This document shows, one piece after another, positions 21,084-60,127 of a DNA stretch of 64,000 bases. Under the pieces are notes generated by a model that made no database searches, was not told the DNA's origin, and saw nothing but the letters and a program-made list of their open reading frames with translations. The stretch lies in the IMG/VR virus record IMGVR_UViG_3300044798_000325, positions 1-64,000 of that record, one strand, 5' to 3'. The stretch comes from a virus. A program made the position numbers and the translations under genes. Each line of letters opens with the position of its first letter. Position 1 is the first letter of the stretch.

Positions 21084-21095
21084 AGGAGAATCGAG

Positions 21096-25243: not shown

Positions 25244-28200
25244 ATGGATCTGAATTCGTCCGCAAGAAGTCCACTATCGCTGTCCAAGTCCTTTTATGAT
25301 GACATCACGAAGGACATTCCCTCTCCTGTCTCGAAGGATTTCTATGACGCTGTCTCAAAACCAGTAGAGGCAAAACAGGTCCCTGTTACCCCGGCCCGCT
25401 ACGAGATGGCGTCGCCGGGAGAGATCGCCGAGACTGTCGGCGCGATCGGCGAGGCGGTGATCAGGATCCCCCTGCAGGTTGCCGGTGCAACCGCGAGTGC
25501 GATCCGGGGTGGATCACGAGAAGCCATAGCTGACAAAAACTCCTTCCTGACCAGGATCATCGACACCGCCAACAAAGACGCAGAGGATTTCCAGAAGAAA
25601 TACGCCGACAACAAGGTGGTCATCGCACCGCTTACGAAACTCGGCCTTCCCGCCGATTTGGACACGCAAACGATCACACGAGCCCCCCAACAGGCGGCAT
25701 TCTCGGCGGTGAGCGCTGGTGCCGGTCTCGCAGCGGGCCTCGGCACGGCGGCAATCTCCGGTCCCGCGGCACCCATTGCCGGACGTGCGGCTGGTATGGC
25801 CGCATCCGGTGCGGCAGGATACCGGATTCAAAAAGATATGTCAGCCCAGCAGTTATACGCGAAACTCAACGAAACCAGTATGAAGGCGGTGGGGAGAGAA
25901 CTGACCCCGGAAGAATGGAAAACGGCCTACGATCGGAACGAGGGGCTCCTGGTCGAACAGGGTATTTCTGAAGCCATCCCCGAAGCCATCGGGAACTTGG
26001 TCGGGTTTGAGCTGTTTTTTGGAGCGGCTAAAAACATATTCGGCAAGCAGCTCGCGAAGACGGTTATCGGGAAGACCCTCGGCAAATATGGGGCGGGAGC
26101 TGTCGGCAAGCTCCTGGCAGAACAAGCGACGGAGCAGGCCACGGAAACAGTGTCGCAGCAGTGGCAGCATAACCTTGATCTGGAAATGGGGCTTTCTCCT
26201 GGCGCGACGAAGCGTTCATGGACCAGTTTTGACGATCTGAGACAGTCCAACAAGGAGATCTTCTCTGACATCCTTCTTCTCACCGCGGGAATGGGCGGCG
26301 CCGGACTCGTGGGTGGACACATCCAAGCCAAGATGGACACGAAGGCATCGGCTCAGCTCGTGAAGAACGTTGTCGCCGAGAACAAGTTCGGGTCGATCCC
26401 CAATGAATTTCTCCCGGCCATGTACGAGCACGCGCAAGAACTATCAGATAAGCGTCCACAGGATAAGGGCCTGACCACTGCAAGAGACGCCTTCGCGACC
26501 GAGATGGACAAGCGCGGCATAGACTTCGACATGACGAGCAAGTTCAAGGAATACCTTGCTCTGGACGCGGAGATAAAGACGGAGGATGCCACAGGCGAGG
26601 ATGTGGCAAGATGGGTCTCTCTACGGGATGAATTCAATGAAAAAAACATCAGCCCGGATCTCTACCAGCAGTATTTGACCTACCAGTCGGACATCAACAA
26701 AGCCGTTGGACTGCAAAAACTCATCGCGACGGGCAAGGCGACGGATCCCCAGCGGAAAGAATTCAACCGGCTGGCCGGCGCGGTTGCCTCCAAGGCCACG
26801 ATGTTCGGGTTCCCCGAGGAAGTTCTCGACTCTACCGGTGTTGAAAAGGGCGGCGTGGTCAGAAAGCCCCTGGGGCCAGCCAAGGGGGCGGCGAGGGATA
26901 TTCTCCTGGCAGACGAACCGGCAGCCAAGCGGAAGAACCTCACGGCGAAGGACATCTTAACGGAAGGGGATGTCGACATCCAGTCCGAAGATGATCTGAC
27001 CCCCGAGGCCCTGGCTGACATCGACAAGAAATTGAAGATCGCGGGCACGGGCGGCGCGAGAACGCCGCTGAATGTAGCTGGGGAAACTCCGGCAAAGGTT
27101 CTGGACATCACGAAAGAGGTCAAGACCCAGGATAAAAAGACGTTCGATCTCTGGGACACCCAGGAGACCGGGACCCCGCCTTTCGTTCGGACGAAGGTGG
27201 AGAGCCTATTCGCGGAAGGCGGCACGGCGGCGGTCCTTGATGAATACCGGGGCGAAGATACTGTCAGTGCATATGCCCGGTATCGGCTCGGGATGTTGGA
27301 GAAAACCGCCGTGGATAAGAAGACCGCCGAAGCGCCCGCAGCCCAAGGTGCCGCACAAGAAACGGGTTTAGCGAACCAGATCGCAACCGGCAATTTGGTG
27401 GAAGACTTTACGTTTCCGGAACATTATTCTCCTATGGACCTGAATGGACTTTGGGATGAACTTTATATGGCCAGCGATGATATTGCGGCCAAGAATAAAC
27501 CAACCATCGATGCCCTTGCCCAGGAACGGGACGCACTGAAATCGGACCGCGGTAAAGAAGCGGTTGCACGGAAGAAGCAGATCGATGAAGAGATCGGGAA
27601 CCTTCGGGCGGAATCGCAGATTGTCACCCGCCATGCGGAAATTGCCTGGCAGTATGCCCAGGAGGACCTGGCCCGAAAGGTCGTAGCAAAGTTGAAAGCA
27701 GAAGGAATTGAGGCCGACAACGATACGGTCTATGACGCCATCGCTACCCTGGCGGACGGACGTATGAATGAACAGGGTTGGAAGCAGCCTTTACTGCAGC
27801 AAGTGATTGATTCGGTAAAGGGAGGGGAAGCACCCACACCAAAGTCGGCCCGAGAGAAATCGGATGAAGAGGTCAAACAATACCGGGATGCAGGACATAA
27901 TATCAACGATAACGGCGTCTATAATGAACCAGAAAAGATCTCCATCCCATTCAGCAAGTCATCCGGAAGGGAGGGCAGCATCCGCATAGCGGAAGGCCCT
28001 GACGGGAAATTCCGCATTGGCGTCAATATCTCGAAAAAATATGGCGACTACGAGGGGAGCGGAAATGCCCCAGGTATCGACGGCACGCCATACGATACGC
28101 GAGCCGAGGCGATCAAAGCCGGCATTGACATAATAAGGAGCCGTACAAAAGACGACGACTCCAAAGGGAAAGCCGCCTTGGTAGAATTGGCAAAGTTCGA

Positions 28201-31200
28201 GAAAGAGCAAGCCACTGAGACCAAGGCCGCAGGCACGGGCGGCGCGAGAGGACCCGTGGATGCCGTTGAATCCGCACCTAGGAAGATCGTGACGGTCATC
28301 AGAACGGAGCACGTCGATAGAAGCAAAGCCAGCGCAGCGGACCTGGCAGCAGACTACAAGGCCCGTGGACTCGATAGGCATCTGGCATGGGATGAGTTCA
28401 TCAAGGACCGAATACTGAAACCGGAGATTGATGCTAAAGTTTTCTATGCCCTTTTCGACAAGACATCCCCTATCCCCCTGGTCGGAAAGAGAACGTCAGA
28501 AGAAGTATCCTTTGTTCCCACGCATCGCAGGATTTCAAGCGGTGAGCTTGTCCAGGCAGAACCCCCAAACGAGAGCGGTATTGCAAAAGTCATCACGGAA
28601 TCCGGGAAGGCGGAATCCGACCACATCAGCAACTTAGCTTCGCTGGGAAAGAAGGCCCCGGAGAAGATCGGCCGGCAGACCAAAGAACCGTGGCAGATGA
28701 CGAGGGGAGAGTTTAGGAATCAGCCAAATGTCTTTTCCGATGCTCAGGCGTATGCTCAACACTATACGGAAGTTAAACAAGCCCTCTCCGAAGGCAAGCC
28801 CGTCCCCACCGAAGTCCTGAAAGACTACCCGGAACTTGAAAAAACGGAAGAACCCACGGAGATTAAGGCCGCGGGCACCGGCGGCGCGAGAGGCCCGAAG
28901 GCGGGGACCGTCAAGGCCCCTGAAGCAGCGAAGACAGAAAAACCTGTTCCTACCGCGGCAGAATTAAAATCAAAGGAGGAAGAGGGTAAATCAAGGGGCG
29001 TCAAGAAGTATCTGCTCGAACATCTTGATGAAGCCATCGCCGCCCGGACAGCTTATGAGAACAATAAGACCGAGGACGCCGGACCCCTCCACGTCCTCAT
29101 CGACGTTCCCATGGACGGAAAGTTCCGGATATTGAACACGAAAGAGAACCTGGAGAAGTTCAAAAGGAAAGTGTCGGGGATGAAGGTGACGGCGGCGCTG
29201 AACAAGCTCCCGCAGCACTCCGACAAACCCACAGGCAAGTCCACGGATCTGATCACAAAAGAAGCGGAAGCGGAAGTCTCCGATTACTGGACGAAAAGGA
29301 GTGAGTGGAAGGCCAGATACGAAGCAATCCCGACAGAGGTTGAAGCTGCCAAGGCTCGCCTCGACCGTTACAACGAGATCAAACGCAAGGTTGACGCCAA
29401 GGAGATCACCCTGAAGCAGCTCGGAGAGGATGCGAAGGCCGCATCGAATGAAGAAAATGCGGGTCCTGAAGCATGGAGAGATTCATGGTTCGGGAAGACC
29501 CCGACGTACAAAGACCTCACGGACCGGATCAAGGAAATAGAAAAGGAAATCAGCGATCTGGAAGCGTCAAGGCCGGAGATAGAGACCACCATCAAATCGT
29601 ATTATCCCGGCCTCGCGAAAGAGATGTTTGAGGGGAAGGCAGTAGGGAAAGCGGGAGAGGAGAAGGCCCCGGCCGGGGCAACGGCGGAAGTCAAAGAACC
29701 GTGGCAGATGACGAAGGAGGAATACCGGAACGGCGATGTAAAACTCGTCGCTGCCCAGAAAGATCTGGATGCGGCCAATGCCGGACTTGGAACGGGAAAG
29801 TGGGAACACGCCGGGGTCAGGTTAAAAAGAGTTGAAGCGGCAAAAAAGCGATGGTCCAAGGCATGGGATGGCGCAGACAAGACTCACGGGGAGGCTGTCC
29901 GCCAAGCCCTCGCTGAAGGAAAACCCGTTCCCGAATCCGTCCTGAAGGATTACCCGGAGTTTCAGAAGGCCCCCGAAGAGATCAAGGCCGCCGGTACGGG
30001 CGGTAAAAGAGGCCCGAAGGAGGAAAAAGAGAGCGCCGCCTCTGGCAACGAACAGGCCGAAATAAGAGACCGGCTCAGGGCGCAGAATGCGCGAGAAGCC
30101 GAATTTGAATACCAGAAAAGGCGCATAGCCCTTTTGGAGGATGCGGACAAGGTTTCGCAGGCGGAGAAATTTTCGCAGGAGGATGCCAAGAGATTTCTCT
30201 CTGATCTCGATGCTTCCCCCGGCGATGATCCTGCGGCAAGGGAGGCTCTCTATGCAAAGTATCCTGAGATCGCCCCCCCGAAGGGAGAGGCACAACCGGT
30301 CGCGGCGGAAAAGAAAGAAGCCCCTTACGCGGCAGCCGTGGGGAAAATAGCGGGCAAGGCAGACCGGGCTAAGGAGCGCGGATATGAGTTTGCTTACGGA
30401 GAGACAGCGAAAGGGTCCGAGCTTTATTGGGACATGGTTGGCATCTTCTCTGGCGCAAGCGCGGATAAGTTGGTTGAGGCCGGGATTATCATCAGGAAAA
30501 TACAGGCGGAAGCGCCCCAGGCCGACATCCTGAAGGAGATCGCCGAGATTTCAGATGAGGACCTTGATGCCCTGCTCGACGTGCCGGAAAAGAAAGAAGC
30601 CGCACCGATCATATTCCAGATCGACGACATGGTCAGACCAAAGGCCGGGAGTGGAATATCGGAAAAGAACGCTGGCCGGGTCCTTCATATCTTTACCGCG
30701 GCGGATGGCGTACAATCCATACGGACGGAAGGAAGCGGGAAGATTCACTTTTTTGCCAAGCACTTTGAACTCGCTTCCAAAGAAGCAACGCCCTCTGACG
30801 AAGCAGTCAAACGGCGTTCAGAACAGTTGACTGAATTGTCGAAGGACCTGACGCCGTTTTCCAAGACCATGCCCGCGAAGCCTACCCCGTCAGAAATGGG
30901 GGTACGGAAAGAGAGTCCGACCATGAGACAGGCGACGCTCATGGGCCGCACCGTTTGGACAAATGGGAGCTATATTGAAAACTCAGAACTTGACCCTTAC
31001 CCGAAGATGCAAGGCCGGACACTGGAAACGGGAGGGCTGGCTAACGGCAATATCATCTGGAATCAAGCGAAAGACTACGATGTCATAGTTGAAGGGCCGT
31101 TGGCGCTCCTGACGCGAGACAGAGAAACGATAGAAAAAGAGATATATCTTTTTGACCTCGGTGCGGATCATCCCCTTTTTGTAGCCAAAAGGCTCTATGA

Positions 31201-34200
31201 CCATTTCTACATGAGATACGGAAATCTCATCCTGAAGTGGTCTGGCGACAGCAAAGACAAACTCCCGATGCTGTCCGTTTATGATGGCGATGAAATGGTC
31301 GGGGCGATGATGCCGATCGCGGATAACTCCATTGAATCCGTGAAGGCCATCAAGGAAGCCCTGGCATTGAAAAAGGGGAAGCATCCCCTTTTGGAAGGGC
31401 GCGGGTCGATACTCCCTTCAGCGAAACCGGCCAAGGCCCTCGACGATATCCTGGCCGATGTTGCCAAGGAGGGGGTCGAGGGTGCAGGAGAAGCCCTGAA
31501 AGGTCTCTATGAACTATTCGGCGGGGCATCCCTGAAGTCTTTCCCCGGTGGGTTTGATGAGGACACCTACCTGAAAGCAAAGCCCCACTTCGAGGCGGCT
31601 CTGGATCACTTCATTAAGGTGGGGAAGGGCCTCCGGGAATTCGCCGCGTCCATCGTACAGCAATTCGGCGATGCGATCCGACCGTACCTGAAACAATTCA
31701 TAAAGGATAGGAGGGATGGGGTTACAGAAGAAAATGCCGAAGAAGAGGGCGAAGTAATCAACCTTGACGAGAACACCGGGAATGGGGAGGGGGGAGCCCG
31801 GACCCGTCGGAAGTTGACCGATCAGGAGAAGGCTGAGAAAAAGGCCAAGGAAGTAGCCGCCGAAGAGAAAAAGGCTCGGAAGGCCGCGATGGGCGAATTC
31901 AAAAACGTCGGCTATGTCTATGATCCGGAGAAACTGAATCAGAAGATAAAGGATAAGCCGCCCAAGTCTGCGGCGAAGATCATTCTCGACGAAATGGTCC
32001 CTGGGAAATTATGGGCGATTGATTTCCCCGAAGGGGCGACGCCGGGTGTCGTGCGGGTAAAGGATCAAATACAAAAGCACTTCCTGACGTTCAAGGAATA
32101 TCTTACCGAAAACCGGGACCGGTTGCGCTATATGTCCGGTAAAACCATAGACGATAAGATCGAGCACTGGCTTAATTTTCGTGAGGGTTCTATCGACAAA
32201 CTCAAGGAATGGGCGAACGAGTACGGAAAGACCATGCAGCCCGTCATTGATGCCTTTAATGGGCAGGCCAGTATCATAAACGTCATCGGTCGGTTACAGG
32301 ATACCGTACTGGTTGGAGCCCGACAAGAAGATGGAAGGTTCCCGCCATACACAGAAGTGCAACACAGTTTCGTCGGTCTTATGAGTACCCGTGATTACGT
32401 TCAGAGACCCCACAGCCTTTATGCTTTCCTGACCGATTCCTGGCAGCGGTTGCTTGAGGACGAGAACGATATCCTGCTGTCGGAGATCGACATCAACAAG
32501 CGCGGGCGCAACAAGATGGTGGTTCGCTCCGGCCTGCCCGATTACCGGGAGGATGTCGAACTGAAAAAGACCGAGGACTTTCAGGCTCCGTTCGGATTCA
32601 AGGGTGTCGGCTTCGGAGAAGAGGGGTGGATCAACCAGGAGGAGCGTAACCGCGTCATCCCGGCAGCGTATGATGCCTTCAAGGATCTGGCCGCGACCAT
32701 CGGCGCACCCGACAACGGCATGAGCTTGGGCGGGGAACTGGCCGTACAGTTTGCCAACCTGGGACACAAGGCGAAGGGCGCGGCGGCGGCATACTTCCCC
32801 ACTGTCCAAACGATCAATTTCACCCGTGATAATGGCGACGGGACCATGGCCCACGAATGGGGTCATGGATTGCAGGACCTGGCCGCTGATGATGCAAAAA
32901 CCGAAATAGAAAAAGTTGTCAATACATTCCACCATGTCTATGACTTCGAGGCTGGAACCCGCCTGGTTGACGACCTGCTTGCGAAGGATTCCATGTTTCT
33001 CAAACGAATGGTGTCGTCAAAAAAGCAGCAGCGGATCGAGGCAGTAAAGAACGAAGTTACCAGCAGATTTGAGGATACGGTCAGGAAGGACACGGATTAT
33101 TACAGCACCGCGCAGCAGATGGACCCTGACTATACCGCACGGGCGCAAGAGATGTGGGCAAGGGCGTTCGAGGCATACATCTACGATACATTGCAAGGCA
33201 AGAACAACTACCTGGTCAACGATTTCGTCGCCGCCGGCAGGGTAGGCGGCAAGGCCGGCGTCGGGACAAGGCTGGTATATCCCTCGGGGAAGGAACGCGA
33301 GACGTTCAATGCGACCATCAAGCATCTCCTGGACGGTCTTGTGTGGGATGAATCCGGGAAGCCGTCCCTCAAGGGTGATTACGTCTCCATTGAAAAAGCC
33401 AATGAATTGATGCTTCAGCTCCAGTTGAGATACCTTTTAGAACAGGTAGAGGCTCGATATACCGCGATCTGGGCGTCCGAACCATCCAAGGACGGGTATT
33501 TCTGGTATCGTTATGACGATACATCTTTCGGCCCGATGATGCAGCCGGATGGGTATGACGGATATGACAAGGTGCATACGTCGGAAGGACAGAACGGTAC
33601 GGGCGCGGTTGCCTACTTGACGCAGCTCCATCCCGATGCTATATTAGACTATAAGCTGTCAAATATCCAGTATGAGGGCGAAAACCCGACTTACATCTCC
33701 AAGGAAAGGGGTGGTATTGATGTTACACTTCAAGATGATGGCACAGAAGCACTGGAAGAAGTACCTCCCAAGCCTGACGGCAGCCCTGATGAAGAAGGGG
33801 ACGTTCGATCAGGAGACCGAGGAAGCGGCGACAGCGGCGTGCCGGGAACTTTCGAGCATGGTAAACAGAGGGGCACAACTGGAAGCAGCGAAGGAGATAG
33901 TGCTGAAGGAGTACATCCTTCTCCCGCCGGAAACTACCGAATAACCGATCTCACCTTAAACGATCCGAAATCAGTCCCCGTTCGGTTCGGTCTCAATTTA
34001 TCTGCTGTCAAAGTCCTTAATCTTGTAGAATCCGAGAATCGCATTCCAACGGATGCCGAAAAGGACATCATGGCTCAGTATAGCGGCTGGGGCGGAATGT
34101 CTGAGCTGTTTGCCTACGAACCCACTGCTGCATGGGCGGGCAAGGCCGAACTGCTAAAGGCCGAACTCACTGAAAACGAAATTCGGGACGCAGCGTCGTC

Positions 34201-37200: not shown

Positions 37201-40200
37201 AGCCCGCGGGCAGTACAAGGTCATCACCACAAACCGCCGGATCGTCAATGCTGGTCGGCTACTGGCTACGGCGTATCAGAATATCGATAGCGTCCGGGCA
37301 GACGATACGCCTGTCAAAAGGCCGATTATCCGGGGAGGGGAGCCGCAACGGGTAAAGGTGGCCCCCAACCAATATGTCGAGGATTACAAACGGATCATCC
37401 TGGAGCGATGCGCCGGAATAGAAGCGGACCCGAAAAATGCAGAATATGAGGGTGTCCCCGACAACATGCTCCGAATCATCTCCAACATGAGCAAGGTGGC
37501 TATCGACCAGCGCCTTGATCACCACTATGCCAACACCGAGATGCAGCAGGATTCAAAGATCGCCACAGCATCTAAAATCATGTATCGGCGATGGAAAGAA
37601 GAGGCGGCGCATAAGGGCGTTCAGCTTGTCTTTGCAGACCTGGGTATCCCCGGCAAATACGCAGATAAATTCAAGTATAAGACCGAAGATGAAATTTCCA
37701 AATTAAACCCCGAAGATCTGACTCTTTACAATGAAGAAATGTTTGAACACGAAAGCGCGTCTGCCGGGTTTGATACATACGAGGGGTTAAAAAAGGAGCT
37801 GGTAAAGTTAGGGATTCCTGAAAATCAGGTTGCATTCATTCACGACGCTGACCATACCAACAAGGAAAAGAAGGCAGCAAACCTTCGCACACTATTCAAG
37901 AAAATCAACGCTGGAGATATTCGTGTCCTGATCGGATCTACCAGTAAGGCGGGTACGGGGGTCAACATTCAGGGCCGCGTGTCGGACATCCATCACCTTG
38001 ATGTGTGGTGGAATTTCTCTGCATGGGAACAGCGCAACGGGCGTGGCATCCGGGCCGGGAATCTGTATGCCAACGAGGGAATGCCGGGAACCTACATCTG
38101 GAATTATGTCACCGAAACAACGGTGGATGCTACCCGGTGGGACAAAGTCTTCGCCAAGGGGAAGGTCCTCAATGCCGTTTTGGGTGGAGACATCAACCTT
38201 GATGTGATCGAGGACATCAGCGACGAGACCATGAGCGCGAAGATGATGGCGGCTGAAGCATCCGGCGATCCGCTCATGTCTACCCAGGCGACACTTCTCC
38301 AGAAGGTGCAGGGGCTTCGGTTCGAGCAGGCCGCTCATCTCGACGTTGTCCGACGGTCGAGAATGGATCTGGCTGCCATTCCCGGTCGGATTGAAGCTAT
38401 GGAGAAAAGCATAGTCGATTACCAGCACAGCCGTGGCATTATGAGCAAGGTAACGGCGGTGCGGTTTATGGGTGACGACCGGACTCTGGTACTTGAGAAG
38501 CACGGGAAGGAGATCGCCGAGGCGCTTGAAAAGGCAGTCATGGCGGACACCGGTTCATGGACGGAGAATAAAAAGGCTACGCTGTTGGTGTTCGGCAGCC
38601 ACACAGAGACAGAAGTTGTTGAAACAGTAGAGGGAAAGGACGGCGAGCAAAAGGAAAAGAAGACGAAGAAATACGCCTTTGTCCCTCTTCCCGCGAAAGC
38701 CGATATCACGGGAAAATCAGCAGACCCCTATGGGCGGCGGCTCTTGATGTCCGGGGATATCATCAGCAGCGACCGGAATTTGGCCGACATAAAGGCTTCT
38801 TTGGGGAAAAAAGGAATCGAAGCCACCGTGGATATCAAGGCCAATGTGTCCAGGACGGTTACGGAATTCCTGTCATGGCTGAACAGCAGCGAAAAAAGCG
38901 CGAAGGAGAGGATCGAGGAACTCAAAGACAATACACCGAAATTGCGGAAGGTTATCGACACCCCTTGGGTGAAAGTAGACGAGCTTGCGACGAATGACAA
39001 AGAGCTGCGTGAAGTAGAGGCGAAAATGGCCGCAAGAGGGATTGCCGCCGGAGATCCCATCGCCGGAATTCCAATAGATAAATACAAGGGTGTTATCCCC
39101 GTTCTTGAAGATGTGGCGGACAAAGACGGGTGGTCGTTTCACGATGGGATTGTTTACCCGCACCAGAACACAACAATCGGCGTTCGCGGCAAGCAAGACC
39201 TCAGCCGTTTTCTTAAAAGCGGTAAGCTCAAGCCCCACATAGCGTCCAGTTACAGCGCTCCCGACACCCTGAATGCTCTGGACGGAGGCAAACCCCAGTC
39301 TCCCGCAACGAAGCCGATAGCCTACACCACGATCAATAACGAAACCCGGCTCTGGGTGCCTGCCGGGGGGTCCTATGTAACCGTTGATCCGGTTGAGTGG
39401 AATCTCCTTCAAAGAATAATCGGGAAAGAGGGGACATGGCATTACGAGTCACGAAGCATGGGCGAGAGGTTCCTGGTCCACGTTTCCGAGAAGAGTGAGA
39501 GGGACGCATTTATCTTGGCGAAGCAAGCCAGTTATGTACCACAGGGGGTGAGGGATATCGACGACAAGGCCATGAAGGGCGCAGCCCCGCCGGCAGGGAA
39601 AGTACAATACTCCGCCGCCCAGGACCAGACCCCAGCGCCGACCCTGGCCGACGTTCAGGAGATCTTCAAAGGGCAGGAGGTTTGGGAAGGTCCTGACGGA
39701 ACGATATTCATAAAAACCCGTAGCGGTGCCGCTCTTTCCGTTATCGGCGTTGACAATATATCCGTAAGTGAAATCAATTTCCGAATGGGTTATAGCCGAA
39801 AAATCGGCTCTGGTGAACGTGTTGTCGGCGGTTATGGAAGGAATGAAGAGGGATGGATGGGGGTTATCAAGCTCATCAAGGATGCAGCAGGAAAGGTCAC
39901 TCTCGCCCACGAATCCGCTCATTTTATGGAGGATTTTGGTATCATCAACGCCGAGGATGCGTCGATCCTTCGCGGGCATATCAAGGACCTCGTTCGCTCG
40001 GGCAAGCGGAAGACCGCCAACGAGGACGACATTGGGGGGGCTGAGGACCGGGCAAACTTCCTGGCCGATGCCTTGACTCAGGCGAAGCCTCCGGGCGGCC
40101 TGGTCGGGTTGATCGTCGCCAGGGTTCGGAAATTCCTCGATCGGCTCATGGAGGCGTTCGGTATCAGGACGGCGGGGGCCGTGACGAGGGACGTGAAGAG

Positions 40201-43200
40201 TGGGCGGATCTTCGAGCGGGAAGGGCAGGGCTCGTCGTTTGCTGATGAGGCTTATTCTTTGGCCCCGGCTACCATAAAGGCGTATGACGAGGCACTTTCC
40301 GTCCACGCATACATCTCTCCGCGGGTGAAGCCATCACTCAGCGCCCAAGAAAAGACCATCCGGGACAATGCCTATGGAGTCAAAGGAATGGACCCGGTCG
40401 TGTTGGATGGTGTCGCCAAGGAAATGGCGGCACTCATCCCCAAGGAGGCGGGAAAGTCGGCGATACTGGTCCCGATACCCGGACATACCGGGGATACGGC
40501 AGCGAACGTCGCCCTCGCGGAACGGATTGCAGCGATCACGGGCAGCAGGGTGGCAGACGTACTCAAGCGGCAGGCTGGACAAAGTCAGCGGGATGCTCGC
40601 GTAGCCGGGCGGCGTACCATGAAACCCGTCGAGTTCGGTATGGTCAGTACGGAAACACTCGACGGAGATAACGTCTTTTTCGTTGATAATGTGATTTCTT
40701 CGGGAGCAACGATCCGGGCAGCGCGTGATGCGGTAGGCGGCGGCAAGGGGCTGGTCTACGCAAAATCTAATCCGAAAGGTGAAAAGTACACCATTGGAAC
40801 CATGGACCTGGAATTACCAAAGTGGCTCGGCGACAAGGTCAAGCAGGCGTTGAAGAAGGATGCGGTCGCCTCGATTCTCATCGATGCCGGACCTATCCAG
40901 TCCGGTCCGCTCGACGGCGGCTGCAGGGTTCTGGCCAGGGCCTTAAAGAGAATCGAGCCGAGCGGCAAGATAATCACCATCGAAGGGCAGCTCAAAGACG
41001 GGACCTGGCAGGCAGAGCACTACGGCTTTGAACTGGACGGAGGGATGATCGACGGTGATGGGTATGCGGCATCTCGCGAGGCATGGGCGAAACGCTTCGC
41101 AAAGAACGAGAGTCTCGACAGTCCGTATCGGATTACCGAGGGGGAGGTCCAGAGTGAAGACATTCCGCAGGATGCTCCAACCGAAAAGAAGCTGGCAGCC
41201 GCCTTAGAGAAGGAGCTGGCTCCTGACGAAGCATACAGGGAACCCCGCGCGGAGCAAGGAATTGCCGTCTACGAACATCTCCCAGTTTTCGCAATTACGG
41301 AAAAGGGGTTGACAAGAAAGCCCCGTAGAGCTCTTAATAATAATCAAGAGGTATCCAATGGACAAGAAGTATCCGGAACCACGTTGGTGCGGGCTGACAA
41401 TGCCCTTGCCGCCGGACAGGGGACCGATGATAAACGGAAAATACCCGCCCCTGGAGGAAGGGTGCTTCCCTATGTTCCCGAACGGGGTACCCTCCCCACC
41501 GTCAAAAGCGAACCCATCGGAACCTGGAAATCCTCCCGCAGAAAAATAACCAGCCTGGAAGACGCCGCCGTTATTGCCCGCGACAACCTGTTCCGTGATG
41601 CACAGGAAGTCTTTGTTACAATCGTTACCGACAAATCTGGAAAGATCCTTGCGGTCAACCAACACGCCACCGGAGCCCCTAACCAGAGTCAAGTCTACGC
41701 TTATTTTGCTGCCGGACAGATATTGAATATCGAGGGCGCGTCCAAGGTATGGACTGTCCATAATCACCCTTCCGGACAAGCAAAATTGTCCGAGGCCGAC
41801 CTGAGCGTAAGCTCAAACATAGGCGATCTTATCGCGGACGCCGGGATCGAAAGTATGCCGATCATTGCGATCACGCCGTCCAGATATTCCGATAACATGT
41901 GGTCGAGCGAACCCCTTCCACCAAAAGAACCCGCAATTTACAAACTGCCCGTACTTGGGAGAAAATTTGACCAGTCCCCGGAAGGTCTTGAAAGCATAGG
42001 AAGCCAGAATGAATTTGAGGAGTTTGGCCGGTTATATATGAAAGAGGGCGGGATGGTTCTGGTTTCCGCTCAGCGTCAGCCCGTTGCTTTAATCGCTATC
42101 GATGACTACTCAAAACTCCGCCCCCTTCATACGGAAATCCTTCGTGAAGCGGAAAAGAGAAATGCCGTAGACTTCATGATCTATAGCCCTGAAAAGACAT
42201 TAACGAAGGCTGATATTGACAATCTGCTTTCCTTCGCGAAAAACACACAGCTTGAGTTCACGACTGTCCGAGACAGGGCTGGAGACCACTACGAAAAGAT
42301 TAAGGAACTTTGGGGGGCTGTAAGAAATAGTAAGGAGAGAAAGGTTTTTTATTCCGTCCAGAAGGACGCCATCGACAACACTTCCATTTTCCCCGAAGCG
42401 AATGAGCGTCTGAATCTTCCTGCTGATGTCATTGAGCTTGCGGAAGCAAGCGGAGTCAATCCGAAGGACATTAAAATTATAAAACTTGAAGACCGAACGG
42501 AGTATTTCAGTCGTTACGGCGTCCCGAACTCGATCAACGAAGGGTACGGGTATTTCGGCGGCAGATCCGGAAGTTTGTTCATAGACGACGATACCGGGAA
42601 ACCGGTGGCATATTTGCCAGCAGCAAAGACAGGAGCAGAGGGAAAACTCCAATACTCCGTCCAGAGGGACACGATCGACAGCTCCTCGATCTTCCCCGAC
42701 GTCAACGAACGCATAAAGATGGCCAAGGGTGTCAAGTACGCCTCTCTGAAGGACAGGGCGAAGGATGCCCTCGTCACCGGTTGGGAGCATTTCACCCGGC
42801 ATTTCCAGCACCTTGAACCGGAAACAAACGGCGCGGTCATCGATGTCTTCCGCAAGTTCCAGGATGTTCCCGCGTGGGCGAAGGATGAAACCGTTCGGCA
42901 GCTCTCCGGCTTCATCGGAAGGCTCTCTCCCCAGGGCCGGGACGTGTTCATGATGAACATTCTTTTACCGGACATGATCCGGGACATCGAAGATGGCACC
43001 CTGGTCGTTGAAGATGAGGTCGGACTTCCGTTCGGTTACAAAAACAGGGATCAGGTACAGCAGGATTACGACCACTTCCGGGCCATCGCCGAGGGGAGTA
43101 CCGCGATAATGGAAGCCCTCGACAGGCGGAACACCTTCATGGCCTCGTTGACGGACCAACTCATCCAGCACAAGCTCCTGAAAAAGGAGGTCGCCAACGA

Positions 43201-45685
43201 CCCGACAGCCTACTTCCATCACCAGGTCCTCGCCTACATGAATTACAAGGAGAACCCGAATTGGGGGATGTCTTCACAGGACGTTCGTACCCACCGAAAG
43301 GGCTGGCAGGTCGGGCGGAAGGGCTCCCAACTTGATTACAACACCGAGTATGTCGAATCCGAGTTCGAGATTATTTCCCAGGCATTGACTCAGATCGAGA
43401 CGGTCAAGTCTCTGAAAGAGATCGAGCGCCTGGCTGACATCAAGCCGGAACTGGAGGCCGAGGCCAAGGACCAGAATATGGCGACCTTCAGGCGAAAGGC
43501 TTTCACGAACCCCTTGGATGACCCGCTTCTGCCTTACCGGGTGAAGATTGCGATGGGATTCCAGAAACTCGCGAAACTGTTCACGACCGAGAACGACATG
43601 GGCTCCCTGCCGATGGAGTTTGACGATGTCATCGAGCACATCGTTGACCAGGAGGAGCAACGCCGGGCGGCCAAAGAGGACGAGATCGAGTTCGACCCCG
43701 TGCCTCACCCCCGGATGTTCGCCCTGCTAAACTACCTGATCAACCACGAGGGGCCGGGATCTATGCCGGCGGCCATGATTTTCAAGGCGATCGCAGCGAG
43801 GAACGCCTTCATTAAGCAGGTCGTCGGCAAGGATTGGGTAACTTACCGCGACCTAATCCCCGAGGGGTACGTTGCCCATAAACCGGAAACCGGGAGCACG
43901 TTTTATTTCACAAACAGCATTGCAGACCAGGCGCTCGCCCAGGTATTGGCCGGGCACAAGAATCTCCCGGACGCCGTGCGGCAAGTCATGGCGCGGGGCC
44001 GGGATGAAGAGTGGGTCGTGAAGGAGGGGATCTCCAAGACCCTGAACGAATTCCGGCCGGCCATGTCGGACTCGCTCCCGGCGAAGATGTCGAAAAGTAT
44101 GCTGACGGCCTGGAAACAGTGGATTCTTATGAACCCTTTCCGGGTCATCAAATACAACATCAACAATATGTCGGGCGACCTCGACATCGCCCTCGCCTAC
44201 GACCCGAAGATCATCACGGATTATTTCACACAAGCCTTCAAGGACCTATGGGCGGCATCCAGGGGGAACGCATCCGAGACCCTGATGGACGAATTGTCCG
44301 GGCTGACTAAGCGCGGCGTTGTCGGGTCCGGCATGACGGCGATGGATATCCCCGAACTGGGAGATGTCAAATCTGTCAAGGGCCTCGTGGACTTCTTCGA
44401 CGGCAAGAGCAAGAACGCCCTGTCCCGTTGGTGGACGATGAGCAAGAAACTCTCGACCTTACGGGAAAACATCCTGCGGCTGGCGGCGAATCGGTATTTC
44501 CTGGACCGACTGGCGAAAGGAGATATCGTCTATGGAGCCTCGCGCAAGGAAGAGGTTGACGCCATTGAAAACCGAGACGACAAGGCCGCAAAGCTGGCGC
44601 GAGAACTGATCGGCGACTACGGCAATATCAGCCATGCCGGACAGTATATCCGGGAGCGGATGATCCCCTTCTACTCTTGGCTTGAGATAAACGCGCCCCG
44701 GTACGTCCGGTTATTCAGAAACCTGAAGGATGAAGGCGGCGGTGGTATCGGCGCCATGGGCGGCGTCCTGGCCTGGAAGACGACAAAACTTGCCGTCAAA
44801 GCCTCCGCCCTCATGGGGCTGGTCATGTTGTGGAACGCGGCGTTCTTCCCCGATGAAGAGGATGAGCTGCAAGAGGCCGGGCGAGAACAGCTTCACATGA
44901 TCCTGGGGCGCCGGGCTGACGGCTCCATCATCACCCTCAGATTCCAGGGCGCCCTATCGGATGCCCTCTCGTGGTTCGGGATGGGCAACCCCGTTGAGCA
45001 GGCCAAGAAGGTTGTCAGCGGGACAAAGGGCGCCGGCGACCTGGCGAAGGAAGTAGTCAAAGCCGCGCCTCTAAAGCTCTTCCAGGGATTCAGGCCGGAG
45101 CCGAAGCTGCTATATGAGACCCTGTCCGGGCAGAGTTTCTTCCCGGATCCGATGCACCCGCGACCGATCCGCGACACGACGGAGCATATCCTCCGGACGT
45201 TCTCCCTGGACCGGATCTACAATCAGGCGTCGGGGAAGCCAAAGCAGGGCGGCACCTGGGCGACCCAGATGTACCGGGACATCCAAAGTCTGGCCCTCAC
45301 CGAGGCAGATCCGGGCGAACAGGCATACTACACCAGCCGGAAATATATCTTTGACTGGCTGGATAAGCAGGGGAAGGAAAAGCCCGCGGCCATGCCGACA
45401 AACAGGAGCAATTCCCTCTACTATTACAAGCAGGCGTTGAAATTCGGTGATTTTGACGCAGCGGAGAAGTATCTCAAGAAGTACCAAGACATGGGCGGGA
45501 AGTTGCACGATGTCATGGGGAGCATCAGGCGGGTTCACCCGCTGGCGTCTTTGAGGCTGGCCGACCGGTACAAGTTCAAAGTGTCCCTGTCACCAGAGCA
45601 GCAGGAGACGCTATCCGTGGCGACCGCATGGTACAAAAAGCATTATGTCGATACTTACCAGGAACAAAGAAAAAGGGGGATGTGA
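25244..45685 (+). CDS. Giant polyvalent protein (protease, methylase, helicase and other modules), 6,813 residues
   Basis: One open frame of 20.4 kb, about 750 kDa. In order: a start with SFYDDITKDIP/DFYDAVSKP repeats (16-41); Ala/Gly-rich hydrophobic stretches (~152-193, 348-363); four KAAGTGGARGP-type linkers (600, 995, 1210, 1582) with two KEPWQMT units (1147, 1484); zincin motif HEWGH (2537-2541) followed by WARAFEAY (2638); adenine methylase with LDPAVGANG (3016) and NVPF (3083-3086); SF2 helicase with GHEVGTGKT (3720-3728), DEAH (3885-3888) and QRNGRGIRAG (4263); second HESAH (4889-4893); PRTase-like VDNVISSGAT (5147-5156); Cys5227/His5259/Asp5270 as possible papain-like centre; RadC/JAB HNHPSG (5506); LPD38-like C-terminus with a hydrophobic helix (~6500-6534). 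The methylase-helicase part belongs with N12-class/DarB-like proteins. Probably packaged and injected; antirestriction role is inference. Confidence 0.85.
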   Translation: MDLNSSARSPLSLSKSFYDDITKDIPSPVSKDFYDAVSKPVEAKQVPVTPARYEMASPGEIAETVGAIGEAVIRIPLQVAGATASAIRGGSREAIADKNSFLTRIIDTANKDAEDFQKKYADNKVVIAPLTKLGLPADLDTQTITRAPQQAAFSAVSAGAGLAAGLGTAAISGPAAPIAGRAAGMAASGAAGYRIQKDMSAQQLYAKLNETSMKAVGRELTPEEWKTAYDRNEGLLVEQGISEAIPEAIGNLVGFELFFGAAKNIFGKQLAKTVIGKTLGKYGAGAVGKLLAEQATEQATETVSQQWQHNLDLEMGLSPGATKRSWTSFDDLRQSNKEIFSDILLLTAGMGGAGLVGGHIQAKMDTKASAQLVKNVVAENKFGSIPNEFLPAMYEHAQELSDKRPQDKGLTTARDAFATEMDKRGIDFDMTSKFKEYLALDAEIKTEDATGEDVARWVSLRDEFNEKNISPDLYQQYLTYQSDINKAVGLQKLIATGKATDPQRKEFNRLAGAVASKATMFGFPEEVLDSTGVEKGGVVRKPLGPAKGAARDILLADEPAAKRKNLTAKDILTEGDVDIQSEDDLTPEALADIDKKLKIAGTGGARTPLNVAGETPAKVLDITKEVKTQDKKTFDLWDTQETGTPPFVRTKVESLFAEGGTAAVLDEYRGEDTVSAYARYRLGMLEKTAVDKKTAEAPAAQGAAQETGLANQIATGNLVEDFTFPEHYSPMDLNGLWDELYMASDDIAAKNKPTIDALAQERDALKSDRGKEAVARKKQIDEEIGNLRAESQIVTRHAEIAWQYAQEDLARKVVAKLKAEGIEADNDTVYDAIATLADGRMNEQGWKQPLLQQVIDSVKGGEAPTPKSAREKSDEEVKQYRDAGHNINDNGVYNEPEKISIPFSKSSGREGSIRIAEGPDGKFRIGVNISKKYGDYEGSGNAPGIDGTPYDTRAEAIKAGIDIIRSRTKDDDSKGKAALVELAKFEKEQATETKAAGTGGARGPVDAVESAPRKIVTVIRTEHVDRSKASAADLAADYKARGLDRHLAWDEFIKDRILKPEIDAKVFYALFDKTSPIPLVGKRTSEEVSFVPTHRRISSGELVQAEPPNESGIAKVITESGKAESDHISNLASLGKKAPEKIGRQTKEPWQMTRGEFRNQPNVFSDAQAYAQHYTEVKQALSEGKPVPTEVLKDYPELEKTEEPTEIKAAGTGGARGPKAGTVKAPEAAKTEKPVPTAAELKSKEEEGKSRGVKKYLLEHLDEAIAARTAYENNKTEDAGPLHVLIDVPMDGKFRILNTKENLEKFKRKVSGMKVTAALNKLPQHSDKPTGKSTDLITKEAEAEVSDYWTKRSEWKARYEAIPTEVEAAKARLDRYNEIKRKVDAKEITLKQLGEDAKAASNEENAGPEAWRDSWFGKTPTYKDLTDRIKEIEKEISDLEASRPEIETTIKSYYPGLAKEMFEGKAVGKAGEEKAPAGATAEVKEPWQMTKEEYRNGDVKLVAAQKDLDAANAGLGTGKWEHAGVRLKRVEAAKKRWSKAWDGADKTHGEAVRQALAEGKPVPESVLKDYPEFQKAPEEIKAAGTGGKRGPKEEKESAASGNEQAEIRDRLRAQNAREAEFEYQKRRIALLEDADKVSQAEKFSQEDAKRFLSDLDASPGDDPAAREALYAKYPEIAPPKGEAQPVAAEKKEAPYAAAVGKIAGKADRAKERGYEFAYGETAKGSELYWDMVGIFSGASADKLVEAGIIIRKIQAEAPQADILKEIAEISDEDLDALLDVPEKKEAAPIIFQIDDMVRPKAGSGISEKNAGRVLHIFTAADGVQSIRTEGSGKIHFFAKHFELASKEATPSDEAVKRRSEQLTELSKDLTPFSKTMPAKPTPSEMGVRKESPTMRQATLMGRTVWTNGSYIENSELDPYPKMQGRTLETGGLANGNIIWNQAKDYDVIVEGPLALLTRDRETIEKEIYLFDLGADHPLFVAKRLYDHFYMRYGNLILKWSGDSKDKLPMLSVYDGDEMVGAMMPIADNSIESVKAIKEALALKKGKHPLLEGRGSILPSAKPAKALDDILADVAKEGVEGAGEALKGLYELFGGASLKSFPGGFDEDTYLKAKPHFEAALDHFIKVGKGLREFAASIVQQFGDAIRPYLKQFIKDRRDGVTEENAEEEGEVINLDENTGNGEGGARTRRKLTDQEKAEKKAKEVAAEEKKARKAAMGEFKNVGYVYDPEKLNQKIKDKPPKSAAKIILDEMVPGKLWAIDFPEGATPGVVRVKDQIQKHFLTFKEYLTENRDRLRYMSGKTIDDKIEHWLNFREGSIDKLKEWANEYGKTMQPVIDAFNGQASIINVIGRLQDTVLVGARQEDGRFPPYTEVQHSFVGLMSTRDYVQRPHSLYAFLTDSWQRLLEDENDILLSEIDINKRGRNKMVVRSGLPDYREDVELKKTEDFQAPFGFKGVGFGEEGWINQEERNRVIPAAYDAFKDLAATIGAPDNGMSLGGELAVQFANLGHKAKGAAAAYFPTVQTINFTRDNGDGTMAHEWGHGLQDLAADDAKTEIEKVVNTFHHVYDFEAGTRLVDDLLAKDSMFLKRMVSSKKQQRIEAVKNEVTSRFEDTVRKDTDYYSTAQQMDPDYTARAQEMWARAFEAYIYDTLQGKNNYLVNDFVAAGRVGGKAGVGTRLVYPSGKERETFNATIKHLLDGLVWDESGKPSLKGDYVSIEKANELMLQLQLRYLLEQVEARYTAIWASEPSKDGYFWYRYDDTSFGPMMQPDGYDGYDKVHTSEGQNGTGAVAYLTQLHPDAILDYKLSNIQYEGENPTYISKERGGIDVTLQDDGTEALEEVPPKPDGSPDEEGDVRSGDRGSGDSGVPGTFEHGKQRGTTGSSEGDSAEGVHPSPAGNYRITDLTLNDPKSVPVRFGLNLSAVKVLNLVESENRIPTDAEKDIMAQYSGWGGMSELFAYEPTAAWAGKAELLKAELTENEIRDAASSSTSSYYTPVVVGQFMWKLAQRLGFEKGVVLDPAVGANGLFLGTIPADLSQGTALQGIEMDTLSARIASKLYGLASIENKAFQDVKKPNNRFDLTITNVPFERITPTDLKHNKGGHTLHNYFINKMLNLTAPGALSMMITTSNTLDTVGAHLTEYAEKAHFVGAIRLPSGIYSATKVATDILVFRKKIEGGKFTGIPTEEWTTAGEDESTGLTINNYFLKHPEMVAGKLEKITGRYGNEGLRVVGDGDLQANLERIAAAFPDKIVEREAVREAKSIDDIISAPGTIKEGGLYINDKDEVCLKEDGEEMKLPVATASEQKKAAIARGYVHILDQVRTVLRAQKTETDDAVVKAEQTKLKKFYDQFVKKFGPINDPKNHDVYVDYTDSAWVIALEEYDPDTGKVTKIADIFTKNITGIASRPDRADTDHDALAMALDEFGYPNLEYMARLRNSDVASVMAGVGDKIIENPETGFLETMDEYLSGNVKRKLAVASEMAQSNPEYARNVSLLEAAQPAEIPQHRITARIGASWISPEHLAEFVRDKMGLRHGLHAVFNFSPVSNEWSMSFHGEEHYRGRGKGVSENKAEVQRQIAAAKGSVEATTLWGTQRMDFFELMKCALQGKRPQVTVYVEGKQYLDEVATQAAEVKLQDIQLEFGRWLFADTFRSDQAVKRFNDLINTSVPMNADGSHLTFPGKSMWMVTPKEKATLGVGDALVFYPHQMNAAWKYLKNGNLYLGHEVGTGKTVTMGLIAMEAKRLRGKKKVLYVTLNDSTMGQAVAEIKNLYPMANILPVRVSTNEQRKQRSLQKIALNDFDIAIMRQQDYDRIGLSPESERVFIEEEILELREILEEAKRDGARILEQDIQVQLHALEEKLKAPSVYDEAKKKNLFFDDLGIDLLIVDEAHKYKNVPYATRLTRITGLNPAGSPTAKDFFRKTQYLNAQFPKKDGIVLASGTALSNSIAELYNIQRMLQPLEVKRQGVWSFDRWIANHGDMGSQLEWDGARGQYKVITTNRRIVNAGRLLATAYQNIDSVRADDTPVKRPIIRGGEPQRVKVAPNQYVEDYKRIILERCAGIEADPKNAEYEGVPDNMLRIISNMSKVAIDQRLDHHYANTEMQQDSKIATASKIMYRRWKEEAAHKGVQLVFADLGIPGKYADKFKYKTEDEISKLNPEDLTLYNEEMFEHESASAGFDTYEGLKKELVKLGIPENQVAFIHDADHTNKEKKAANLRTLFKKINAGDIRVLIGSTSKAGTGVNIQGRVSDIHHLDVWWNFSAWEQRNGRGIRAGNLYANEGMPGTYIWNYVTETTVDATRWDKVFAKGKVLNAVLGGDINLDVIEDISDETMSAKMMAAEASGDPLMSTQATLLQKVQGLRFEQAAHLDVVRRSRMDLAAIPGRIEAMEKSIVDYQHSRGIMSKVTAVRFMGDDRTLVLEKHGKEIAEALEKAVMADTGSWTENKKATLLVFGSHTETEVVETVEGKDGEQKEKKTKKYAFVPLPAKADITGKSADPYGRRLLMSGDIISSDRNLADIKASLGKKGIEATVDIKANVSRTVTEFLSWLNSSEKSAKERIEELKDNTPKLRKVIDTPWVKVDELATNDKELREVEAKMAARGIAAGDPIAGIPIDKYKGVIPVLEDVADKDGWSFHDGIVYPHQNTTIGVRGKQDLSRFLKSGKLKPHIASSYSAPDTLNALDGGKPQSPATKPIAYTTINNETRLWVPAGGSYVTVDPVEWNLLQRIIGKEGTWHYESRSMGERFLVHVSEKSERDAFILAKQASYVPQGVRDIDDKAMKGAAPPAGKVQYSAAQDQTPAPTLADVQEIFKGQEVWEGPDGTIFIKTRSGAALSVIGVDNISVSEINFRMGYSRKIGSGERVVGGYGRNEEGWMGVIKLIKDAAGKVTLAHESAHFMEDFGIINAEDASILRGHIKDLVRSGKRKTANEDDIGGAEDRANFLADALTQAKPPGGLVGLIVARVRKFLDRLMEAFGIRTAGAVTRDVKSGRIFEREGQGSSFADEAYSLAPATIKAYDEALSVHAYISPRVKPSLSAQEKTIRDNAYGVKGMDPVVLDGVAKEMAALIPKEAGKSAILVPIPGHTGDTAANVALAERIAAITGSRVADVLKRQAGQSQRDARVAGRRTMKPVEFGMVSTETLDGDNVFFVDNVISSGATIRAARDAVGGGKGLVYAKSNPKGEKYTIGTMDLELPKWLGDKVKQALKKDAVASILIDAGPIQSGPLDGGCRVLARALKRIEPSGKIITIEGQLKDGTWQAEHYGFELDGGMIDGDGYAASREAWAKRFAKNESLDSPYRITEGEVQSEDIPQDAPTEKKLAAALEKELAPDEAYREPRAEQGIAVYEHLPVFAITEKGLTRKPRRALNNNQEVSNGQEVSGTTLVRADNALAAGQGTDDKRKIPAPGGRVLPYVPERGTLPTVKSEPIGTWKSSRRKITSLEDAAVIARDNLFRDAQEVFVTIVTDKSGKILAVNQHATGAPNQSQVYAYFAAGQILNIEGASKVWTVHNHPSGQAKLSEADLSVSSNIGDLIADAGIESMPIIAITPSRYSDNMWSSEPLPPKEPAIYKLPVLGRKFDQSPEGLESIGSQNEFEEFGRLYMKEGGMVLVSAQRQPVALIAIDDYSKLRPLHTEILREAEKRNAVDFMIYSPEKTLTKADIDNLLSFAKNTQLEFTTVRDRAGDHYEKIKELWGAVRNSKERKVFYSVQKDAIDNTSIFPEANERLNLPADVIELAEASGVNPKDIKIIKLEDRTEYFSRYGVPNSINEGYGYFGGRSGSLFIDDDTGKPVAYLPAAKTGAEGKLQYSVQRDTIDSSSIFPDVNERIKMAKGVKYASLKDRAKDALVTGWEHFTRHFQHLEPETNGAVIDVFRKFQDVPAWAKDETVRQLSGFIGRLSPQGRDVFMMNILLPDMIRDIEDGTLVVEDEVGLPFGYKNRDQVQQDYDHFRAIAEGSTAIMEALDRRNTFMASLTDQLIQHKLLKKEVANDPTAYFHHQVLAYMNYKENPNWGMSSQDVRTHRKGWQVGRKGSQLDYNTEYVESEFEIISQALTQIETVKSLKEIERLADIKPELEAEAKDQNMATFRRKAFTNPLDDPLLPYRVKIAMGFQKLAKLFTTENDMGSLPMEFDDVIEHIVDQEEQRRAAKEDEIEFDPVPHPRMFALLNYLINHEGPGSMPAAMIFKAIAARNAFIKQVVGKDWVTYRDLIPEGYVAHKPETGSTFYFTNSIADQALAQVLAGHKNLPDAVRQVMARGRDEEWVVKEGISKTLNEFRPAMSDSLPAKMSKSMLTAWKQWILMNPFRVIKYNINNMSGDLDIALAYDPKIITDYFTQAFKDLWAASRGNASETLMDELSGLTKRGVVGSGMTAMDIPELGDVKSVKGLVDFFDGKSKNALSRWWTMSKKLSTLRENILRLAANRYFLDRLAKGDIVYGASRKEEVDAIENRDDKAAKLARELIGDYGNISHAGQYIRERMIPFYSWLEINAPRYVRLFRNLKDEGGGGIGAMGGVLAWKTTKLAVKASALMGLVMLWNAAFFPDEEDELQEAGREQLHMILGRRADGSIITLRFQGALSDALSWFGMGNPVEQAKKVVSGTKGAGDLAKEVVKAAPLKLFQGFRPEPKLLYETLSGQSFFPDPMHPRPIRDTTEHILRTFSLDRIYNQASGKPKQGGTWATQMYRDIQSLALTEADPGEQAYYTSRKYIFDWLDKQGKEKPAAMPTNRSNSLYYYKQALKFGDFDAAEKYLKKYQDMGGKLHDVMGSIRRVHPLASLRLADRYKFKVSLSPEQQETLSVATAWYKKHYVDTYQEQRKRGM

Positions 45686-45996
45686 TGGCGGCGATTAGAA
45701 TGAGGATACTAAGCGGATTAGTTCTTTGCACCACAGTGCTTGTCTGGGCGGTCATTGCTTTAGCCGCCGTGACTCAGGCGTCATCCGATTCCGTGCCGTC
45801 ATGGTATGAGCATGTCGATTTGATGCAAGCCGTCATCGCCGGACTTTTTCTACTGACCCTATGGTTACTGGTACGCACCCTGACAAAGATCGACACGAAT
45901 CAAAGCCTGCTGTTCAAAAAAGTGGATGAACTCTGTAAGGATTTTTACACCTTACAGGGGGAGCATCAAGCCTTGAATAATAAATGTCATCAATAA
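45685..45996 (+). CDS. Small two-helix membrane protein of the lysis cassette
   Basis: 103 residues. ATG 45685 overlaps the stop of the giant gene (TGATG), so it is coupled to it; longer in-frame starts inside the giant gene are rejected. Two hydrophobic helices (about residues 9-29 and 48-64) precede a charged helical tail (KKVDELCKDFYTLQGEHQAL). It could be an antiholin, a second holin or an anchor protein. No known family recognised. Confidence 0.6.
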   Translation: MAAIRMRILSGLVLCTTVLVWAVIALAAVTQASSDSVPSWYEHVDLMQAVIAGLFLLTLWLLVRTLTKIDTNQSLLFKKVDELCKDFYTLQGEHQALNNKCHQ

Positions 45997-46005
45997 GGAG
46001 GGTGT

Positions 46006-46299
46006 ATGACGACTTTTTTTGGAAAGGTCAAGCGGATCAGGACAGAGCTGACCTTGCTTTTGGTGCTGGCAATCGCGATTGCGTTCATCCCCCCCGAGGC
46101 CCGGCTGGGGCTCTTGGGGCTCTTCATAACGAAGGGGATGTTTGTGACGATGGGCGTTCTTTATGCTCATGCCTCCCGGAAGTTCCTGTTCCCCTATCTC
46201 GACATGGAGGACCTCATCACAGAACATCACTGGGGGGGCGTGGCGTTCTTGACTGCCTATTACGGGGTGGTGATATGGGCGTTCGCTGTTGGTGGCTGA
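46006..46299 (+). CDS. Probable holin
   Basis: 97 residues, AAGGAGGGTGT before ATG 46006. Three hydrophobic helices are visible (about residues 16-28, 33-53 and 77-93) with charged N-terminus (VKRIRTELT). Size, topology and the lytic transglycosylase start inside its 3' end (46275) fit a class I or phage-holin family protein that permits endolysin activity by opening the inner membrane. Confidence 0.65.
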   Translation: MTTFFGKVKRIRTELTLLLVLAIAIAFIPPEARLGLLGLFITKGMFVTMGVLYAHASRKFLFPYLDMEDLITEHHWGGVAFLTAYYGVVIWAFAVGG

Positions 46300-47416: not shown

Positions 47417-47417
47417 T

Positions 47418-60126: not shown

Positions 60127-60127
60127 C

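What the first reader, a model, noticed from the sequence alone, without database searches (positions are those of the whole stretch)
25244..45685. One 6,813-codon phage gene encoding a multi-enzyme polyvalent protein
The sequence shows a single open frame of 20.4 kb with separate protease, methylase, helicase, phosphoribosyltransferase-like and JAB modules. Polyvalent proteins are known from phages and conjugative elements, and P1 DarB is packaged and injected. This one is exceptionally long and sits at the end of the virion-protein run, directly before lysis. I infer an injected countermeasure against host DNA defence that may act in several steps.
Basis: partly seen in the sequence, partly recalled or inferred. 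Interest (0 to 1): 0.88.

Follow-up and report, generated by a model that had tools for sequence, protein, structure and literature searches.

The report
Giant DarB-like phage polyvalent protein gene
An integrated virus of bacteria carries one unbroken 20.4-kb gene for a 6,813-residue chain of enzymes, a very large member of a known class (DarB-like "polyvalent" proteins) that other phages pack in the virus particle and inject to shield their DNA; its size, swappable parts and a repeated linker motif are of interest, but the kind is already described.

Summary
In detail: 25244-45685 is one open frame of 6,813 codons. Syntenic frames of 6,677, 6,506 and 5,581 aa occur in three IMG/VR contigs and the gene is under purifying selection, so it is no artefact. 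The named modules are there: two zincin-type protease motifs, an adenine methylase fused to a SNF2 translocase (the DarB dyad), PRTase-like and RadC/JAB segments. It is a DarB-like polyvalent protein, a class described in 2017; six annotated phage relatives measure 3,640-4,914 aa, and the one in podovirus JC1 is a proven virion protein. Injection and antirestriction here are supported by analogy, not shown. Added here: (i) a ~1,000-aa helical C-terminal module without a Pfam family, shared by some 40 phage frames with different cargo, with loose fold similarity to LPD38-type termini; (ii) separately exchanged modules (PRTase-RadC missing in one relative, zincin-2 replaced); (iii) a repeated IKAAGTGG(A/K)RGP peptide in the N-terminal linkers, kept while the linkers diverge; (iv) RadC in 14 further phage frames. 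The contig looks like a prophage edge beside host type I R-M and Gabija genes. New member of a known kind.

The parts
25244..45685 (+). giant polyvalent protein gene, 6,813 aa
   Evidence: conserved frames in G001, G003, G004
25244..27043 (+). N-terminal region (residues 1-600) with two hydrophobic stretches (153-171, 339-357); candidate capsid-targeting/ejection part (inferred)
   Evidence: no family; AlphaFold model uninformative (pLDDT 39.7)
27044..31345 (+). charged, fast-changing linker region (residues 601-2034) carrying the repeated IKAAGTGG(A/K)RGP motif
27032..27067 (+). linker motif copy 1 (LKIAGTGGARTP)
28226..28255 (+). linker motif copy 2 (AAGTGGARGP)
28868..28897 (+). linker motif copy 3 (AAGTGGARGP)
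29987..30016 (+). linker motif copy 4 (AAGTGGKRGP)
31784..31801 (+). degenerate motif copy 5 (GEGGAR), shortly before the first zincin module
31934..33733 (+). zincin-1 / LPD1 module (residues 2231-2830); HEWGH at 32852-32866, LPD1 at 33113-33334
   Evidence: Pfam LPD1 4e-12; CLCA_X-like 8.8e-24 but below the NCBIfam cut-off; motif conserved in four relatives
33881..35143 (+). adenine-N6 methylase (residues 2880-3300), GWGG (LPD36-like) and TP motifs before the core, motif IV NVPF at 34490-34501
   Evidence: Pfam N6_Mtase 7e-8; motifs in the translation
36314..38113 (+). SWI2/SNF2-type translocase (residues 3691-4290): GTGKT 36413-36427, DEAH 36896-36907
   Evidence: lowest dN/dS of the protein (0.07)
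38114..39613 (+). unassigned region after the translocase (residues 4291-4790)
   Evidence: no Pfam, NCBIfam or PDB-sequence match; dN/dS 0.16
39614..40258 (+). zincin-2 module (residues 4791-5005), HESAH at 39908-39922; apparently replaced as a unit relative to G001/G003
   Evidence: dS about 1.9 against 0.1-0.8 in most other modules
40259..40843 (+). phosphoribosyltransferase-like segment (loop VDNVISSGAT; the usual DD pair reads DN)
   Evidence: NCBIfam PyrR-type E 1e-4, below cut-off; absent from G004
41546..41875 (+). RadC-type JAB domain (HNHPSG...D intact)
   Evidence: Pfam RadC 8.9e-12; absent from G004
42614..45682 (+). ~1,000-aa helical C-terminal module shared with other phage polyvalent frames; one hydrophobic helix (residues 6516-6535)
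   Evidence: model pLDDT 73; fold search
45984..46859 (+). SLT-domain lytic transglycosylase (endolysin), next to the giant gene in G001 and G003 as well

Best explanation
A late gene of a temperate, probably podovirus-like phage. The chain is made with the virion proteins, packed into the head and ejected with the DNA (inferred). Its methylase-SNF2 dyad then moves along the entering DNA and methylates or shields it against the host's restriction enzymes, as P1 DarB protects P1 DNA (inferred from the family). The C-terminal helical module and the N-terminus most likely serve packaging and passage (inferred). The middle is an exchangeable cargo rack: protease, PRTase-like and RadC modules are gained, lost and swapped between relatives (shown for PRTase-RadC and for zincin-2). 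The zincins most likely cut the chain itself, or a host protein (inferred).
For: Methylase-SNF2 core matches proteins annotated DarB-like antirestriction over about 1,500 aa. Same gene position as in JC1, PEp14, POI1126 and SopranoGao: after virion-structural genes, before lysis genes. JC1 gp69 (4,515 aa) is a virion protein, 51 unique peptides (PMC9144972). P1 DarB is packed in the head via an N-terminal signal (PMC9024508) and protects DNA in cis (PMC5512222). Catalytic motifs kept in all relatives that hold the module, purifying selection throughout. Among 32 records picked by the C-terminal module, frame lengths differ (1,384-5,409 aa) and only 6 hold the methylase-SNF2 core. G004 lacks PRTase-RadC; zincin-2 has dS about 1.9 against 0.1-0.8 in most other modules.
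Against: No direct evidence of packaging, injection or methylation. Methylase motif IV is NVPF where six annotated DarB-like proteins have NPPF, though frames in L051 and L093 show NVPF too. The N-terminal region has no relatives in the annotated phage or plasmid collections. The C-terminal module shows no profile-profile relation to known DarB-like C-termini.
Confidence: 0.75

Rival explanations
1. The chain is a polyprotein: the zincins (or another phage or host protease) cut it at the repeated IKAAGTGG(A/K)RGP linkers, and perhaps at (F/Y)S-type junctions further on, releasing separate effectors before or after injection.
For: Four GTGG(A/K)R copies in residues 1-2300 against a shuffled mean of 0.0005; DNA matches in the window 3, expected 0; synonymous codons differ between copies, so the peptide and not the DNA is kept; copies persist in all relatives, L030 included, while linkers diverge. 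Iyer et al. propose zincin self-processing for this class, and P1 DdrB is processed (PMC5512222).
Against: No motif copy lies between the enzyme modules after residue 2200, so cutting there would free only the N-terminal part. N4 vRNAP, a giant ejected protein with a zincin, is packed uncut (PMC5512222). A hinge or a docking site for another virion protein would give the same pattern.
Confidence: 0.25
2. It is chiefly a structural or ejection protein (a conduit across the envelope, like T7 gp16 or P22 gp16/gp20), and the enzyme modules are secondary or decayed.
For: Hydrophobic stretches at both ends; a helical C-terminus shared independently of cargo; it follows long coiled-coil-like late proteins.
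Against: Catalytic motifs intact, and the SNF2 module is the most constrained of all (dN/dS 0.07).
Confidence: 0.12
3. The enzymes act on the host or on rival phages rather than on the phage's own DNA, for example excluding other phages from the lysogen or altering nucleotide pools (PRTase, RadC).
For: Temperate setting: G004 has an integrase-like gene just downstream (by inspection) and G003 an integrase family match; PRTase and RadC have no known antirestriction role.
Against: Late-gene position and DarB homology argue for delivery with the virion; no sign of expression in the lysogen was found.
Confidence: 0.08

Closest known systems
DarB-like antirestriction proteins of Bcep22-type and similar phages (JC1 gp69, PEp14, POI1126, SopranoGao, Atu_ph08, VvAW1)
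   Same: Methylase-SNF2 core at 29-32% identity over about 1,500 aa; late-gene position; next to lysis genes in most; giant size; virion protein in JC1
   Different: 6,813 aa against 3,640-4,914; no SLT, LPD37, LPD38 or LPD39 match (compare PEp14 and VvAW1); motif IV NVPF not NPPF; PRTase and RadC segments; repeated linker motif; C-terminus unrelated at profile level
Phage P1 DarB
   Same: The archetype of the methylase-SNF2 arrangement described by Iyer et al. (PMC5512222)
   Different: About 250 kDa, and acts with five other Dar proteins (PMC9024508); those were not searched for here
Phage N4 virion RNA polymerase (ejected, 3,500 aa)
   Same: Giant chain with a membrane-type N-terminal region, an HExxH domain and a large helical C-terminal domain (PMC12633501)
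   Different: No RNA polymerase here; the C-terminal profile does not match N4's
Plasmid and conjugative-element polyvalent proteins (Iyer et al. 2017)
   Same: LPD1, zincin, methylase-SNF2 and RadC modules
   Different: Phage late-gene context, no ArdC-N or primase found; one passage there confines RadC to conjugative-element polyvalent proteins, another mentions prophages

Membership tests
DarB-like antirestriction (LPD36-methylase-SNF2) polyvalent protein | adenine methylase of the EcoKI/TaqI kind followed by a SWI2/SNF2 ATPase | tested here: met
DarB-like antirestriction (LPD36-methylase-SNF2) polyvalent protein | LPD36 with a GXG(G/A/S) motif before the methylase | tested here: inconclusive
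   GWGG is present at the expected place in the translation (by eye); no Pfam LPD36 hit here, nor in the two known relatives scanned
DarB-like antirestriction (LPD36-methylase-SNF2) polyvalent protein | NPP(Y/F) catalytic motif | tested here: not met
   NVPF in this protein and its three close relatives; six annotated DarB-like proteins have NPPF; NVPF also in L051 and L093. A one-residue variant of an otherwise intact site; activity cannot be judged from sequence, so the filing is as DarB-like rather than as a proven methylase
DarB-like antirestriction (LPD36-methylase-SNF2) polyvalent protein | carried in the virion and ejected | not testable with these tools
   homologue JC1 gp69 is in the virion (PMC9144972); here only gene position supports it
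DarB-like antirestriction (LPD36-methylase-SNF2) polyvalent protein | protects DNA in cis from type I restriction | not testable with these tools
   needs an infection assay
Phage polyvalent protein (Iyer et al. 2017) | several domains of unlike biochemical activity in one chain | tested here: met
Phage polyvalent protein (Iyer et al. 2017) | gene beside late virion genes | tested here: met
   portal and major head protein in syntenic G003
LPD38-type C-terminal module | Pfam LPD38 match | tested here: not met
   no match in any of 7 members; VvAW1 does match
LPD38-type C-terminal module | similar fold | tested here: inconclusive
   Foldseek hits to proteins named LPD38 or large polyvalent-associated at E 1.8e-17 to 8e-7, but TM-scores only about 0.3-0.45 and large rmsd

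The most novel reading that the evidence does not exclude
The giant chain is an ordered delivery string: a shared C-terminal packaging module, a conserved N-terminus and interchangeable enzyme cargo, with the repeated IKAAGTGG(A/K)RGP peptides acting as sites where the string is cut by its own zincins (or docked by a partner) during assembly or entry. That would be a phage polyprotein with a defined cleavage or docking code.
Probability: 0.15. Interest if true: 0.7.

Novelty: new member of a known kind. Interest (0 to 1): 0.42.

Why it matters
It extends a known but little tested class: a very long phage DarB-like chain, a widespread C-terminal module that Pfam does not hold, RadC as a common cargo in phages, and a repeated peptide that gives a concrete test of the old proposal that polyvalent proteins process themselves. 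The shared C-terminus also gives a search handle for such proteins in phages of environmental, largely anaerobic bacteria, where methylase-SNF2 is only one of many cargoes.

Tried and rejected
DNA-level search of annotated phages: no match. N-terminal protein search of phages and plasmids: none. Sequence searches of solved structures with the C-terminal profile and four regions: nothing significant. AlphaFold of residues 1-600 with five sequences: pLDDT 39.7, not used. Foldseek of the C-terminal model against the PDB: no match at E <= 0.001. hhalign of the C-terminal profile with six known DarB-like C-termini and with N4 vRNAP: none. Rejected: assembly artefact (intact frames in relatives); the idea that GTGG copies are recent DNA repeats (synonymous codons differ). 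The N-terminal alignment search added no loci beyond the known ones. A motif hit in L032 is a 69-aa chance frame. The (F/Y)S junction motif is enriched 2.6-fold before the C-terminal module (25 hits, 4.9 against 1.9 per 1,000 aa) but was chosen after looking, so it is only a lead.

Full report
Observation. The frame 25244-45685 is real: one ATG-started run of 6,813 codons, about 0.75 MDa at 110 Da per residue. The window is bases 1-64000 of a 69,164-base IMG/VR virus record classed linear. Three further IMG/VR contigs hold the same gene in the same gene order, with uninterrupted frames of 6,677 (G001), 6,506 (G003) and 5,581 aa (G004), and a fourth (G002) holds its first 1,518 codons up to the contig end. 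Nei-Gojobori dN/dS between the window protein and G003 is 0.07-0.40 in every segment, lowest in the SNF2 module. A sequencing or frame artefact is excluded for practical purposes.

Anatomy. Residues 1-600: two hydrophobic stretches, no family. Residues 601-2034: charged linker, very variable. 2231-2830: HEWGH zincin motif with LPD1. 2880-3300: adenine methylase, with GWGG and TP motifs before the core and NVPF as motif IV. 3691-4290: SNF2 translocase with GTGKT and DEAH. 4291-4790: unassigned. 4791-5005: second zincin (HESAH). 5006-5200: PRTase-like (weak, E 1e-4). 5435-5544: RadC-type JAB with HNHPSG intact. 5791-6813: helical C-terminal module. The catalytic motifs checked are kept in the relatives that hold the module; zincin-2 reads HESVH there.

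The C-terminal module. Pfam has no family for it. A profile-guided search found 46 viral loci and 9 bacterial contigs, among them Desulfobacula, Magnetominusculus, Denitrovibrio, Geobacteraceae and Desulfuromonadaceae bins. In the frames read it is the last part, and outside the close relatives the frames run from 1,384 to 5,409 aa. The methylase-SNF2 core was found in only 6 of 32 of those records, so among proteins with this terminus the enzymes vary. AlphaFold gives a mostly helical model (mean pLDDT 73). Foldseek against viral models ranks proteins named 'large polyvalent protein associated' and LPD38 among its significant hits, though with modest TM-scores; nothing in the PDB matches. I read it as a divergent branch of the LPD38-type terminus, most likely used for packaging or passage, as the C-terminal region of N4 vRNAP is needed for encapsidation (PMC5512222). 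That role is inferred.

Modularity. G004 lacks the PRTase and RadC segments. Against G001 and G003, zincin-2 is at dS about 1.9 while most other modules lie at 0.1-0.8 and the PRTase at 0.12. Modules have thus been exchanged separately. RadC lies in the same frame as the C-terminal module in 14 of 35 phage records, some of them near-duplicates. Iyer et al. list RadC as confined to conjugative-element polyvalent proteins in one passage and mention prophages in another.

Repeated linker motif. GTGG(A/K)R occurs four times in residues 1-2300, with a degenerate fifth copy (GEGGAR), against a shuffled mean of 0.0005. It recurs in G001, G002, G003 and G004, and in the more distant L030 frame, mostly as (D/E)IKAAGTGG(A/K)RGP, while the sequence between copies is not well conserved. 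Codons differ at third positions between copies, so the peptide rather than the DNA is kept. Cleavage site, hinge and docking site all remain possible.

How it most likely works. Shown: the gene, its modules, their conservation, their exchange, the late-gene place before an endolysin. From the literature on relatives: JC1 gp69 is a virion protein (PMC9144972); P1 DarB is packed through its N-terminus and protects DNA from type I restriction (PMC9024508; PMC5512222). Inferred: packaging and injection of this chain, methylation or shielding of entering DNA, self-processing.

Setting. Homology with the relatives ends near 46.8 kb, G+C falls from 0.55 to about 0.42, and beyond lie host-like genes: an IS1595-type transposase, a complete Gabija pair, HsdM, HsdS and HsdR. 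G004 has an integrase-like gene at the corresponding place (by inspection), and G003 an integrase family match elsewhere. The record is best read as a prophage with flanking host DNA; no attachment site was established because the left end is missing.

Verdict. As a kind it was described in 2017 and a member has been found in virions. What is new is the size among phage members, the C-terminal module outside Pfam, RadC as a common phage cargo and the repeated peptide. Interest 0.42; new member of a known kind.

Noticed in passing
window 53553-62905 (-): Complete Gabija pair, GajA (55263-57017, best E 4.7e-161) and GajB (53553-55259, 4.9e-182), next to a full type I R-M set, HsdM 57176-58654, HsdS 58651-60126, HsdR 60128-62905, in low-G+C DNA beyond the phage's right edge.
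   Followed up: partly
window about 46800-50000: Synteny with relatives ends and G+C drops from 0.55 to 0.42: likely prophage-host junction; no att site determined.
   Followed up: partly
L045 (contig G006), protein residues 2636-2949: An intein-like insert of about 314 aa (CVPEDTEI...MITGN|C, LAGLIDADG match) splits the C-terminal module at a conserved site between SW and EINAPRY.
   Followed up: partly
window 19434-22700: Two late proteins (549 and 534 aa) are built of long coiled-coil-like repeats (LLDPMTRKA..., LESDIGRLDFDTAEV...); function unknown.
   Followed up: no
protein junctions near residues 4788 and 5803, and upstream of the C-terminal module in relatives: Short (F/Y)S(V/R/I/A) motif enriched 2.6-fold at the junction before the C-terminal module; chosen after looking.
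   Followed up: partly
L098:15630-18498 (G003): Two DNA methyltransferase genes (phrog_67) sit beside the portal gene of the related phage.
   Followed up: no
window 52176-53078 (-): IS1595-family transposase with zinc ribbon in the flank.
   Followed up: no
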